From Marivirga sericea (GTDB lineage Bacteria; Bacteroidota; Bacteroidia; Cytophagales; Cyclobacteriaceae): a DNA stretch of 64,000 bases. Where the stretch lies: contig NZ_FXAW01000008.1 in the NCBI RefSeq assembly GCF_900177665.1, positions 124,001 to 188,000 on the forward strand, read 5' to 3'. Below are positions 14,994 through 19,207 of this stretch, piece after piece; position 1 is the stretch's first letter, and each line of letters begins with the position of its first letter. The notes under the pieces are model-generated. The model was not told where the DNA came from, ran no database searches, and saw only the letters and a list, made by a program, of their open reading frames with translations. The position numbers and the translations under genes are program-made.

Positions 14994-17900
14994 TTACTTT
15001 TTCTTTAATGGGAATTCAATTGTGAATCTAGTGAATTTATGTTCTTCTGATTCACATTTTAACTTGCCACCAATTTTCTCCACTGCAACCTTTACTAAAT
15101 ATAATCCGAGCCCGTTCCCAATAGATTTTTCTGACCCTCTGTAGAACATTTCAAATATTTTGGGCATTTGCTTTTCCGGAATTCCAACGCCATTATCTTC
15201 AACAAAAAGGACGAAAGATTTATCCTTTCTTATTGTACTTAACTTTATTTCTTGTTGGGGCTTATGATCATCCGAATAAATTAAGGCGTTTTCCAATAAA
15301 TTGAGCAAGATCAACTCGAGCATTTTTTCATCAGTCTTGAGTTCATTTTCGTTCTTCAAGTCAAATTGAAATTTGAAATTTGATTGTTCAACCAAAGGAC
15401 TGATTTTCTCCATCACTTGCTTAAAGATAGTTGGGATGTCGATGGTATTATATTCTACTTGTGAATTGTAGATATTATGGACCTGCGTCAATTTATCCAA
15501 AAGGATATCCATCTCTTTAGTAGTTTTTTCGATCAAGTCTAAGTACTTATCACTTTTAGCTTCAGGATTCTCAAACCTGGCTAAGGCTAAAATACCCTTA
15601 ATCCTGCTAATAGGACCTTTTAAATCATGAGAGGTTTTGTAGGTGAAAGTGTCAAGGTCTTTATTAGTCTGCTGAAGCTTTTTGATCGTGTCTTTGATTT
15701 TAGCTGTCCTTTTTTCAACCCTAGTTTCAAGTGCTTGATTAAGTTCTTGCAATTTGTTATTGATGGCAATTACTTCCTCTTGAGAGCTTTCCAGTTCATG
15801 GTTTTTTTCTAATATGTCATCTCTTTGTTGACTGATTTCCTCATTAAGATTTTGCATTTTTAGCAATTGCTTTTCAATCACCTTTTTTTGTTGGATGACT
15901 TCAAAGGTTCGATCAGCTACAATCAGCTTAAGTCTTTTTCGATGCTGTCTAATTCTATAGGTATATCCTAGCATCAAGAGCCATATAATGCTAACTACAA
16001 TGATACTAAAAAGGAAGTATGCCCAAGTGGTCTGATACCAAGGAGGTAAGATCACGAATTGGTAAGAAGCAATTTCACCTTCAGTTTCGTATAGGTTCCT
16101 ACCCTTCACCGTAAAAGTGTATTTACCAGCGGGTAAATTGGTATATTCCTTATTATTCATTAGAGACCAGTCAGACCATTTTTTATCAAACCCTTGAAGA
16201 TAGTAGGAGTATTGATTTCTTTCGGGCTGTTCATAGAATAGTGCGCTATATTCAAATTTGATATTGTTGTCTTTAAATTCTAATTGAGGAATTGATTCCT
16301 TGGGTTGTTTGATTACTAATGTTGGAATGCTGTCAGTGGTTCTATATTCTTTATATGATCCGAAAGAAAGTATAGAATCATTAAGACTTACTTTTTTTAT
16401 AAAAGTATTGAAGGGGATCTCTAAATCTACTTTCACTTTTTCATCATATCGATAGAGGCCTTCATTACCGGCTATCCAGATTACACTATCTTCGGCCTCA
16501 TCAACATAAATGCTAGAGAAATTCTGATTAGGAATAGCTTTTAATGGTCGGGTTACTTTACGATAGCTCCCATCTTTCGTTCTTTCTAATTTTAATACGA
16601 TTTGCTTTTGCGATTCCTCAATGACAGTCAGCCAAAAATTACCGTTTCGATCTTGATCTATGTTAGTGATATTCAATTTTTCATGAGTGATTTTTGAAGA
16701 TGGAATAAATAAATCTGAAGAATCAGCTTTAGGACTTTTATTCAGCGCATAAAATCCTTTTGAGGTACTGAAAAGGATTTCACCATCTGTAGATTTTAAA
16801 ATATTAATAGCATTAACATCAGGTAAGCCATGTCTTTGATTAAAAAATTGCCATATGGGACTTCCCTTATTGTCATTAATTAAGTATACGCCTTGTGATT
16901 TATAACTTAACCAATGTTGCGACTGCTGACTTAATATGCTATTACAGAACCCACTAATTTCTCCAATGTATTCTTCCGTTTGATCTGATATAGGTGAGTA
17001 TTGAATTATCCCATTACGGAATGTAGTGATATTGTAATTATTGTCACCTGTTGGAAAGGCGTTGGTTCCTCCCTTGATAGATATGGTTTTAATTACATCT
17101 TCATTTTTGATTTTATAAAGTCCGTTATCCCCAATTGCAAAAATATAATCTTTGGTATTAAATATGTTGAATAGTCGATCTTTCGTATTTTCTACGAAGC
17201 GAAGTTTTTTTTTATTGTTAAAGGTGTATAAGCCAGCAAAAGACAGGATATATATTCGATTATTTATATTAAAAACCTCGTTGACTGACGTCTTTAAGTT
17301 AGAATTTTCTCCCCAAAACATTAACATATTACTTGCCTGAATTCGAGTAATTCCTTCTTGGTGAACTGACCAAGTTCCATTTTGAAAATCAGAATAAATA
17401 TTTAAGTTAATATTGCTTGGTAATCCATTATGTATATTTAAGTTATTTAATATTGTATCTTCAATATTAAAACTAAAAACTCCTTGATTTGCAGTAGAAG
17501 CCCAAATTGAATTACTTCGACTCAAGGAAAGAATTGATTTCCCGAAGCTATACTGACGACTTGTTTCAATGATTGAATCGTTCCGAAATATGAATCCCTT
17601 ATTTCGGGATGATCCTATAATGTACTTTTCGTTTTTATTAAGCCCATCAATAATATTGTTTCTTATAGATGACGGAATGCTTTTATTTGACCCTGAAATT
17701 GGATTAAGCTGATCATCGTCAAGTTTTAATAAAGCTTGATTAACTTGTTTTACATAAAGTTTTTCTTCGTGAATAAATCCTCCAAAACCTCTGTTTAATG
17801 GCCAATATTTAAAGTCATTTTTGCTATATCTGATTAAATAGTTTCTTGTGATAAAAAATATATCATTTTTGTTATGCAGTATTTGAAGGACGAGACCAAA

Positions 17901-18314
17901 TCTTTCAAGTTTAAAATTTTTGCTTAATGATTGGTAAAAGATTTTATTCCTGTCGCTTGTATCTATGTATCCAAATTCATCATTACTCCCTACAAAAATC
18001 CTGTCATTTGAATCCTTATGGATCGTCCGTACAAATTTGCCTCCCGCTATTTCAATAAAATCCCATTCCTTTCCATCATATCGTAAAACTCCGTTTAAAT
18101 TGGCAAAGTAAAAGAGTCCGTTCGAAGTTTGTATAATGTCCCAATTTGATATTCCTGCCTTATATTCCTTAGCGGAATAATTTTGTAACATGGGCGCGAA
18201 GTATGATTGGCTATTTGCAATTGATATTTTTAATATCAAAAGGCTTGCAACCAAAAAGCTGAGTGATAATTTTTTGGTTTGGAAGTTATGAATATGTGAC
18301 CAACTTACTTTCAA
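14994..18314 (-). CDS. Propeller-sensor (Reg_prop/Y_Y_Y) histidine kinase
   Basis: A 1106-residue sensor kinase of the type common in Bacteroidota. An N-terminal signal anchor (residues 17-36) precedes a large periplasmic two-component-regulator propeller region (about 40-690) with repeated short units such as GLPDVNAINI and GNEGLYRY. A Y_Y_Y domain follows (about 690-755, YYLQGFDKKWSDWS, AGKYTFTVKGRN), then a membrane helix (about 760-780) and a long coiled coil (about 795-880). The kinase core has the phospho-acceptor His896 in KTSHDLKGPISR and ATPase motifs NLLENALIYS, DNGVGI and GNGLGLYLV. There is no receiver or AraC domain, so unlike hybrid SusR-type regulators it needs a separate response regulator, and none is adjacent. 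Confidence 0.88.
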   Translation of the reverse strand: MKVSWSHIHNFQTKKLSLSFLVASLLILKISIANSQSYFAPMLQNYSAKEYKAGISNWDIIQTSNGLFYFANLNGVLRYDGKEWDFIEIAGGKFVRTIHKDSNDRIFVGSNDEFGYIDTSDRNKIFYQSLSKNFKLERFGLVLQILHNKNDIFFITRNYLIRYSKNDFKYWPLNRGFGGFIHEEKLYVKQVNQALLKLDDDQLNPISGSNKSIPSSIRNNIIDGLNKNEKYIIGSSRNKGFIFRNDSIIETSRQYSFGKSILSLSRSNSIWASTANQGVFSFNIEDTILNNLNIHNGLPSNINLNIYSDFQNGTWSVHQEGITRIQASNMLMFWGENSNLKTSVNEVFNINNRIYILSFAGLYTFNNKKKLRFVENTKDRLFNIFNTKDYIFAIGDNGLYKIKNEDVIKTISIKGGTNAFPTGDNNYNITTFRNGIIQYSPISDQTEEYIGEISGFCNSILSQQSQHWLSYKSQGVYLINDNKGSPIWQFFNQRHGLPDVNAINILKSTDGEILFSTSKGFYALNKSPKADSSDLFIPSSKITHEKLNITNIDQDRNGNFWLTVIEESQKQIVLKLERTKDGSYRKVTRPLKAIPNQNFSSIYVDEAEDSVIWIAGNEGLYRYDEKVKVDLEIPFNTFIKKVSLNDSILSFGSYKEYRTTDSIPTLVIKQPKESIPQLEFKDNNIKFEYSALFYEQPERNQYSYYLQGFDKKWSDWSLMNNKEYTNLPAGKYTFTVKGRNLYETEGEIASYQFVILPPWYQTTWAYFLFSIIVVSIIWLLMLGYTYRIRQHRKRLKLIVADRTFEVIQQKKVIEKQLLKMQNLNEEISQQRDDILEKNHELESSQEEVIAINNKLQELNQALETRVEKRTAKIKDTIKKLQQTNKDLDTFTYKTSHDLKGPISRIKGILALARFENPEAKSDKYLDLIEKTTKEMDILLDKLTQVHNIYNSQVEYNTIDIPTIFKQVMEKISPLVEQSNFKFQFDLKNENELKTDEKMLELILLNLLENALIYSDDHKPQQEIKLSTIRKDKSFVLFVEDNGVGIPEKQMPKIFEMFYRGSEKSIGNGLGLYLVKVAVEKIGGKLKCESEEHKFTRFTIEFPLKKK

Positions 18315-18432
18315 ATTCTTTTATTGATATTGCTCTGAAATAGAAATATATAGAATTTAATCTGAAATTATTAGCGATTTATAATATATGAGGATTTAAC
18401 AGTAGGTATTTTCTTACTTTAGTCAATAAAAA

Positions 18433-18470
18433 AAAACGGTAGGAATATATAGTATATAACCTACCGTTTT
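18433..18470. terminator. Bidirectional terminator
   Basis: A perfect 11-bp stem AAAACGGTAGG / CCTACCGTTTT with a 16-base AT loop and A- and T-rich flanks. It lies after the minus-strand 168-aa gene and about 120 bases upstream of the histidine kinase start. Confidence 0.8.
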
Positions 18471-18494
18471 TAGTACATCTTATATTATTAATTT

Positions 18495-19001
18495 TTATCT
18501 TTTCAAAGCATGAATTTTCTTTTTACTGAATTTTTCAGGAAATTCTTCATACCATTTACTGACCGTTTCTGCCCCTAATTTGTCATAGATATAGGAGAGT
18601 TGTTGACTTAATTTTTCTTCCTGTTGCTGCTGAAACTTTTGTTTCTCTTCATCGCTGTCAAACCCTATTATTTGTGCAGCTTTAGGTGTAGGTTCATGGT
18701 GCACAAATAAATTTAGTTTTTCATGACAAAATTTTTGATAAGCACGAGTATGCAAAATAAAATTATGCCACATTTCATCAATGATGATCAAAGAGTGATC
18801 AATAAACATGCGAAAGCTCTTTTTTTCTTTGATGTTTTCTGATGCCAACCATAACCATTTCTTAGTTTCGGTTAAGATTTCTTCGGCTTCTTCTCTGCTG
18901 ACCGAATATCTTTCCATAAAACCTTCAATAATGACATTGTCCTCATTACAGTCCAATGCTGTTTCCAGGGTTGAATCGATTTTTGAAATTATTTGAGCCA
19001 T
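18495..19001 (-). CDS. GRDP-like (DxxWH motif) protein of unknown function
   Basis: A 168-residue soluble, probably cytoplasmic protein. The core has Asp75, Trp78-His79, His84, Tyr88 and Phe91-Cys92 (DEMWHNFILHT, YQKFC), followed by a His101-His102 pair. This resembles the DxxWHxHxL...Y...C pattern of the glycine-rich-domain-containing-protein-like family (DUF1399/PF07173) known mostly from plants and fungi. The clustered His, Asp and Cys suggest a metal or catalytic site, but no reaction is established. The C-terminus is basic and ends KKKIHALKR. It sits 11 bases downstream of a 41-residue peptide gene under one promoter and one terminator, so the two probably act together. Confidence 0.6.
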   Translation of the reverse strand: MAQIISKIDSTLETALDCNEDNVIIEGFMERYSVSREEAEEILTETKKWLWLASENIKEKKSFRMFIDHSLIIIDEMWHNFILHTRAYQKFCHEKLNLFVHHEPTPKAAQIIGFDSDEEKQKFQQQQEEKLSQQLSYIYDKLGAETVSKWYEEFPEKFSKKKIHALKR

Positions 19002-19012
19002 TTCAATAAGAA

Positions 19013-19138
19013 TTAATGGCTTTCACAAAGTGACATGCACGCTGTCTGGATATTGTTATTTTTATTGATAATTTTCTTCAATAATTGTGCTTTTTCTGTG
19101 TTTACTTTTGAAGTAGTTTTTGTAGAAGTAGTTTTCAT
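19013..19138 (-). CDS. 41-residue Cys-containing peptide, partner of the GRDP-like protein
   Basis: A small gene found by reading the minus strand between a good promoter and the 168-aa gene. It begins MKTTSTKTTSKVNTEK and ends QTACMSLCESH, then TAA. The first 30 residues are rich in Lys, Thr and Asn and could form a short helix (AQLLKKIINK); the C-terminus holds two cysteines spaced C-x3-C plus a terminal histidine. There is no signal peptide or membrane helix, and no double-glycine leader cleavage site. Arrangement and composition recall a precursor peptide (leader plus short Cys core) or a small metal-binding peptide serving the downstream protein. It is unlike any peptide family I recognise; function is unknown. 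Confidence 0.6.
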   Translation of the reverse strand: MKTTSTKTTSKVNTEKAQLLKKIINKNNNIQTACMSLCESH

Positions 19139-19177
19139 TTCTTGTACTTTTTAGAGTTAAATTAAATTTTCAGAGCG

Positions 19178-19207
19178 CAAAGGTAATTTCTGCAAATTAG
19201 CACACAA
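19178..19207 (-). promoter_or_regulatory. Promoter of the 41-aa peptide/GRDP-like operon
   Basis: On the minus strand, -7 TACCTTTG (plus 19178-19185) is an exact consensus match and -33 TTG (plus 19205-19207) lies 19 bases upstream. The predicted leader is about 33 bases before the peptide ATG at 19138. This supports the 41-aa frame as the true first gene. Confidence 0.65.

What the first reader, a model, noticed from the sequence alone, without database searches (positions are those of the whole stretch)
18495..19207. Unlisted 41-aa Cys-containing peptide coupled to a GRDP-like protein
A promoter with both elements (TTG-N19-TACCTTTG) leads into a 41-codon frame ending QTACMSLCESH. Eleven bases later comes a 168-aa protein with a DxxWH...Y..FC...HH set of conserved-type residues, then a strong terminator. 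A Lys/Thr/Asn-rich leader-like part plus a short Cys-containing end, next to a probable metal- or substrate-binding protein, is the layout of a precursor peptide and its modifier, or of a small metallopeptide and its handler. I know of no described system of this form. There is no double-glycine site or transporter nearby, which weakens a secreted-RiPP reading.
Basis: partly seen in the sequence, partly recalled or inferred. Interest (0 to 1): 0.72.

Follow-up and report, generated by a model that had tools for sequence, protein, structure and literature searches.

The report
Cysteine peptide with GRDP-like partner protein
A tiny unlisted cysteine-containing peptide gene and its neighbour form a conserved pair that recurs in several bacterial phyla, looks like a new kind of ribosomal peptide natural-product system, and suggests a testable function for a protein domain that has had none.

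Summary
In detail: a 41-codon frame (19013-19138, minus) under a TTG-N19-TACCTTTG promoter, 11 bases, a 168-aa protein (18495-19001), then a strong hairpin. The frame is coding: all 10 same-genus (Marivirga-type) loci have it with the same promoter, dN/dS is about 0.43 in 9 of them, and its two cysteines never change. Among 80 relatives of the 168-aa protein in six phyla I find, by eye, a short Cys peptide beside 68. The peptides share a leader (K/E..LI..IL) but have different Cys cores; some loci hold 2-5 copies. Operon partners differ by clade: histidine kinase (ours); TonB receptor, DUF4374 lipoprotein and ABC-2 genes; HlyD plus C39-peptidase exporter with double-glycine leaders; methyltransferase plus P450. 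In Azotobacter, Saccharospirillum and small E. coli plasmids a Cys tail is fused to the protein itself. The protein is all-helical, distantly GRDP-like (DUF1399), with conserved D75, W78, H79, Y88, H102. Best reading: precursor peptide plus its (probably metal-dependent) maturase, a RiPP-like class that my searches did not find described. Chemistry, export and product are unproven; in this genome no exporter is linked.

The parts
19178..19207 (-). Bacteroidota-type promoter, TTG-N19-TACCTTTG
   Evidence: Read; same pattern and distance in 10 of 10 genus loci. Transcription start not measured.
19013..19138 (-). 41-aa Cys-containing precursor-like peptide: leader about residues 1-28, core with C35-x3-C39
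   Evidence: Conserved coding frame in 10 of 10 genus loci, dN/dS 0.43 over 9 loci, homologues beside relatives of the 168-aa protein.
18495..19001 (-). 168-aa GRDP-like, all-helical partner protein, candidate metal-dependent maturase (D75, W78, H79, Y88, H101, H102)
18425..18471 (-). Hairpin plus T run, terminator of the two-gene unit
   Evidence: z -4.21.
14994..18314 (-). Propeller/Y_Y_Y sensor histidine kinase, syntenic neighbour in this subtype; candidate receptor or response gene (inferred)
   Evidence: Pfam Y_Y_Y, HATPase_c (HisKA and Reg_prop below cut-off); the same kind of kinase follows on the same strand in 17 of 17 loci L032-L048.

Best explanation
The two genes are a minimal RiPP-like system. 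The 41-aa product is a precursor: an N-terminal leader with an amphipathic LI..IL segment (shown as conserved) that the 168-aa GRDP-like protein binds (inferred), and a C-terminal core with two cysteines. The GRDP-like protein is the primary maturase: a helical protein whose conserved D75/H79/H102 set would bind a metal, perhaps as a two-His-one-carboxylate site, and act on core cysteines (inferred). The matured peptide is cut from its leader and leaves the cell, through a linked C39 exporter in the gammaproteobacterial members (genetically shown), by an unlinked route here (unknown). In the Marivirga-Fulvivirga clade the likeliest use is as a signal or surface-acting peptide sensed by the conserved neighbouring histidine kinase (inferred from synteny only); in the TonB/DUF4374 clade a metallophore-like role (inferred).
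For: Coding and conserved leader plus faster core: pN 0.195 leader, 0.439 core. Linkage: hmmsearch with 13 Marivirga/Fulvivirga-type peptides over 8275 short ORFs of 80 loci: first pass 21 adjacent (6 of them seeds), 0 elsewhere; second pass 43 adjacent, 0 elsewhere; fourth pass 51 adjacent in 49 loci, 10 elsewhere, all 10 themselves Cys peptides farther off in the same loci. Motif control: 59 of 80 loci adjacent against 8, 6 and 12 of 80 in three control windows. Position is not fixed: the peptide is downstream in L056, L059, L066, L068, L088, L091 and others; tandem copies in L054, L073, L090, L095, L100, L101. Double-glycine leaders plus HlyD plus C39 exporter: C39 domain in 5 of 5 exporters scanned of 11 such loci. 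Fusion of a Cys tail to the protein in L092, L103 and an E. coli plasmid protein. Operon type follows the protein's tree: 14 label changes against 52.4 shuffled, 0 of 200 as low. Site residues outside the search patterns are conserved: H102 69/69, Y88 69/69, G143 69/69, H101 66/69, W150 67/69; D, W, H, Y, H also in 5 of 5 distant GRDP-like proteins.
Against: No modification, metal or product was seen. No solved structure resembles the fold (best E 0.53), so an enzymatic mechanism rests on conserved residues alone; D75-H79 invariance is partly built in, because DEMWH was a search pattern. 4 of 80 loci show no peptide (L065, L067, L097, L105). The window's peptide has no GG site and no exporter beside it; the one C39 exporter of the genome sits by other GG peptides. 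The core's higher change rate is synonymous too (dN/dS 0.38 core, 0.42 leader), so positive selection is not shown. The kinase lies behind the terminator, so it may be a mere neighbour. Group F (S9 peptidase neighbours) is scattered on the tree.
Confidence: 0.68

Rival explanations
1. Class II-like Cys-rich bacteriocin or secreted peptide, unmodified or only disulfide-bonded, with the GRDP-like protein as its immunity protein.
For: A small gene directly after double-glycine peptides and before HlyD/C39 is where immunity genes often lie (established knowledge); homologues sit on small mobilizable E. coli plasmids.
Against: The same protein family with conserved polar site residues spans six phyla while cores differ entirely; it carries the Cys tail itself in the fused forms; tailoring-type genes (P450, methyltransferase, dioxygenase, JmjC) accompany some members.
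Confidence: 0.12
2. Intracellular metal handling: the peptide is a small metal-binding peptide and the GRDP-like protein its metallochaperone or partner; nothing is modified covalently.
For: CX2-4C and HCxxCxHC cores; TonB plus DUF4374 neighbours in the B clade, DUF4374 being the siderophore-binding XusB family (PMC13142918, passages); CobN/ExbB genes beside one such locus; no exporter in the window's clade.
Against: Double-glycine leaders and C39 exporters in relatives; long, conserved leader; P450 and methyltransferase neighbours.
Confidence: 0.13
3. Regulatory upstream frame: a Cys-coding leader peptide that controls translation or transcription of the downstream gene.
For: Location just upstream of the gene in the window; two Cys codons near the end.
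Against: Peptide lies downstream of the gene in several groups, in tandem copies, or fused in frame; amino acids, not only Cys codons, are conserved.
Confidence: 0.03
4. Peptide pheromone system in the window's clade only: peptide, GRDP-like maturase and histidine-kinase receptor as one circuit.
For: Kinase with signal-type N-terminus, propeller and Y_Y_Y follows in 17 of 17 loci of this type.
Against: Terminator between; L052 in the same clade lacks it; no ligand evidence.
Confidence: 0.25

Closest known systems
MNIO (DUF692) RiPPs such as bufferins and methanobactin
   Same: Short Cys-rich precursor beside a metal-enzyme gene; link to metals (listing and abstracts seen; mechanism recalled).
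   Different: The enzyme here is an unrelated all-helical GRDP-like protein; no MNIO in this genome.
GRDP-like / DUF1399 family (PF07173), plant GRDP1/2
   Same: Distant homology; AtGRDP2 has an N-terminal DUF1399 and a C-terminal Gly-rich domain with interspersed Cys (PMC4299439, passages), like the Cys tails of the fused bacterial forms.
   Different: No peptide partner described there; bacterial protein falls below every Pfam cut-off.
Double-glycine class II bacteriocins/microcins with C39 exporters
   Same: GG leader, HlyD and C39 ABC exporter in the gammaproteobacterial members.
   Different: Extra GRDP-like gene; Marivirga peptides lack the GG site.
TIGR04165 Cys-rich peptide (methanogens)
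   Same: Short Cys-rich peptide; weak hit of one B-clade peptide, E 0.0044, 17.3 bits against cut-off 60.
   Different: Far below cut-off; other peptides tested do not hit.
Xus siderophore piracy loci (TonB receptor plus DUF4374 XusB)
   Same: TonB receptor and DUF4374 lipoprotein in the B clade.
   Different: Here combined with a peptide, a GRDP-like gene, an unknown 306-aa gene and ABC-2 genes.

Membership tests
RiPP system | Short ribosomal precursor with conserved leader and divergent core | tested here: met
RiPP system | Dedicated partner gene always linked to the precursor | tested here: met
   68 of 80 loci adjacent by eye (L052, L055, L080 weak), 4 distal, 2 fused, 2 at contig ends, 4 none.
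RiPP system | Post-translational modification of the core | not testable with these tools
   Needs mass spectrometry.
RiPP system | Leader removal and export genes | tested here: inconclusive
   C39/HlyD in one clade; none beside the window locus; the genome's C39 exporter is elsewhere.
GRDP-like (PF07173) | Score above the Pfam cut-off | tested here: not met
   0 of 19 relatives' genomes over the cut-off.
GRDP-like superfamily (wider than PF07173) | Profile homology with DxxWH..Y..HH segment | tested here: met
   hhalign 98.9 and 99.0 % to proteins of which 2 of 5 hit PF07173 just under its cut-off, so the link is indirect.
MNIO RiPP | MNIO/DUF692 enzyme | tested here: not met
   No PF05114 match in the own genome.
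Double-glycine class II bacteriocin | GG cleavage site | tested here: not met
   Absent in the window peptide and genus peptides; present in gammaproteobacterial relatives.
Attenuator leader peptide | Fixed position upstream of the regulated gene | tested here: not met
   Downstream, tandem and fused arrangements.
TIGR04165 Cys-rich peptide | Score above the NCBIfam cut-off | tested here: not met
   17.3 of 60 bits for one peptide.

The most novel reading that the evidence does not exclude
The GRDP-like/DUF1399 fold is a previously unrecognised metalloenzyme family that modifies cysteines in Cys-rich peptides and tails, defining a new RiPP class spread over at least six phyla and E. coli plasmids; eukaryotic GRDPs, with their own Cys-bearing glycine-rich tails, would be self-modifying descendants of the same chemistry.
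Probability: 0.3. Interest if true: 0.93.

Novelty: new variant of a known kind. Interest (0 to 1): 0.77.

Why it matters
RiPP classes are defined by their maturases. If this protein family is one, a whole class of Cys-peptide products has been overlooked because its precursors are too short to be annotated and its enzyme matches no model. It would also give a domain of unknown function found in plants, fungi and giant viruses a first biochemical hypothesis, and small E. coli plasmids a possible peptide product.

Tried and rejected
Pfam and NCBIfam scans of the 168-aa protein: no family over cut-off. NCBIfam on 3 peptides plus 2 further upstream ORFs and 9 peptides, Pfam on 10 peptides: nothing over cut-off. 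PDB sequence and fold searches: nothing. RRE test of the 306-aa B-clade protein: 1 of 16 C-terminal segments hit PqqD at E 0.074, the profile hit no PDB chain, so inconclusive. Literature: searches; none listed a GRDP-like RiPP, and literal core strings gave 0 papers; the library lacks most subscription papers, and one search was swamped by 'ripple'. Antisense or chance frame: rejected. The second copy idea: the own genome has one peptide locus only. The first hmmsearch count (21/0, 44/0, 51/1, 59/12) was inflated in later rounds by frames overlapping the GRDP-like gene; it was redone without them. The motif was written after seeing the peptides, and its shifted control windows hold both strands, so it is a rough control. 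The linked-gene census by eye is subjective.

Full report
1. The observation. On the minus strand a 41-codon frame (19013-19138) is followed after 11 bases by a 168-aa ORF (18495-19001). A Bacteroidota-type promoter stands 40 bases upstream of the start codon (19207-19178; read), and a hairpin with z -4.21 ends the unit. The window lies in a 4.74-Mb genome whose close relatives in named records are Marivirga.

2. The short frame is a gene. All 10 same-genus genomes searched carry the 168-aa protein (50-100 % identity, own included), and all 10 loci have the short frame upstream, 41-42 aa, ending in a C-x3-C core. The promoter pattern is present in the same 10 and absent from three more distant family loci looked at. 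Over 9 loci dN/dS is 0.43 (leader 0.42, core 0.38; pN 0.195 and 0.439), that is purifying selection with a faster core, but no sign of positive selection. Codon-position bias and open frames in 7 equal-length loci agree.

3. The pair recurs widely. A sample of 148 genomes of the family gave 21 with a match at E <= 1e-3, the weak ones being other GRDP-like proteins; 395 genomes of the phylum gave 3, own included, at E <= 1e-10: the system is patchy. A scan of GTDB genomes with 19 sequences found 126 stretches that encode relatives, of which the best 80 were kept (L032-L111). By eye 68 of 80 have a short Cys peptide beside the gene (L052, L055 and L080 are weak cases), 4 have it farther off (L077, L081, L082, L083), 2 have a fused tail (L092, L103), 2 are cut by a contig end (L084, L107) and 4 show none (L065, L067, L097, L105). 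Two less subjective counts agree: the profile search (43 adjacent, 0 elsewhere among 8275 short ORFs in its second round; 6 of the 43 are seeds) and the motif control (59 of 80 loci against 8, 6 and 12 of 80). The loci belong to Bacteroidota, Pseudomonadota, Cyanobacteriota, Planctomycetota, Myxococcota and Bdellovibrionota; a few are metagenome bins whose label may be wrong (L097, L111).

4. Anatomy of the peptides. A basic or polar start, a segment K/E-x-x-LI-x-x-IL, then a Cys core: C-x3-C in Marivirga, [ST]HCxxxxHC in the B clade, C-x3-C-x3-C-x3-C after a GG site in Shewanella and Alteromonas, FCGCVIC in Pseudoalteromonas. Tandem copies occur, up to five in L090.

5. Operon types. A: the histidine kinase in 17 of 17 loci L032-L048 (L052 inside the clade has none). 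B: a 306-aa protein in 20 loci, TonB receptor in 19, DUF4374 lipoprotein in 17, ABC-2 genes in many. C: HlyD in 12 loci; a C39 domain was found in all 5 of the exporters scanned, and in L072, L086, L095, L100 and L107 no further gene stands between the GRDP-like gene and the exporter. D: P450 in 6 and methyltransferase in 5 Pseudoalteromonas loci. E: Cys tail fused, with an ABC exporter next to it. F: S9 peptidase in 6 loci, scattered on the tree. In a tree of 83 proteins B, D and E are each one group, A needs two changes, C three, F five of five. Fulvivirga imtechensis and F. kasyanovii carry both A and B types, each with its own peptide.

6. The E. coli homologues. tblastn against plasmids found 32 records at E <= 1e-3, 25 of them E. 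coli, mostly about 7.9 kb and mobilizable, annotated as hypothetical protein. Three were fetched. In the one read in full the 232-aa protein ends in a Cys-rich tail; a second record carries the same protein accession. An ABC exporter and a JmjC/cupin gene follow.

7. The protein. AlphaFold2 with 69 sequences gives pLDDT 90.7 and pTM 0.86, all helical. No PDB fold matches (best E 0.53). Among viral models a Harvfovirus GRDP-like protein is first (E 5.8e-3, probability 1.00, TM 0.48/0.57). Profile comparison with GRDP-like relatives gives 99.0 %. Conserved over 69 sequences: D75, M77, W78, H79, Y88, H102, G143 in all; H101 66, W150 67, E76 67. D75-H79 lies in one of the two search patterns, so its invariance is partly selected; H102, Y88, G143 and W150 are not, and D, W, H, Y, H recur in 5 of 5 distant GRDP-like proteins.

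8. Mechanism. The only parts common to the types are the peptide and the GRDP-like protein; exporters, receptors and tailoring genes come and go. In several C loci the GRDP-like gene is the only gene without an assigned role. The fused forms tie protein and Cys core physically. Hence the reading as precursor and maturase. Immunity protein, metallochaperone and attenuator are weighed in the rivals. For the window's clade a signalling use through the neighbouring kinase is suggested by synteny alone.

9. Known or new. The plant member AtGRDP2 has DUF1399 plus a C-terminal glycine-rich domain with interspersed cysteines and no known biochemistry (PMC4299439, passages). DUF4374 is the XusB siderophore-binding fold (PMC13142918, passages). 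MNIO RiPPs are the nearest kind by layout (listing), but no MNIO is in this genome. Ten literature searches of the held library listed no description of this pair; that is not proof of absence from print.

Noticed in passing
L121 (own genome C15, about 434-441 kb): HlyD plus C39 ABC exporter beside short GG-leader, microcin-like frames, unrelated to the Cys peptide.
   Followed up: partly
L071 10450-11367 and 19 relatives: A 306-aa protein of no known family, always next to the GRDP-like gene in the B clade, with a C-terminal W..ADG segment that faintly recalls PqqD/RRE.
   Followed up: partly
L117 (Aureibacter plasmid pAT2): CobN, ExbB-type and DUF2149 genes directly before a B-type peptide/GRDP/TonB/DUF4374 set, pointing to metal uptake.
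   Followed up: no
L020 and L022: Other GRDP-like proteins with their own short C-terminal CGSC tail.
   Followed up: no
L025, upstream of a GRDP-like hit: A protein with a long Gly-Cys-Ser-rich tail (GCSSCSGCSGCGGCGGCS) beside a GRDP-like gene; TIGR04222-like is recalled, not tested.
   Followed up: no
L051, L073, L082, L090: Two GRDP-like genes in tandem in one locus.
   Followed up: no
L053 10462-11097: A TauD-family dioxygenase overlaps the end of the GRDP-like gene in a Bdellovibrionota bin.
   Followed up: no
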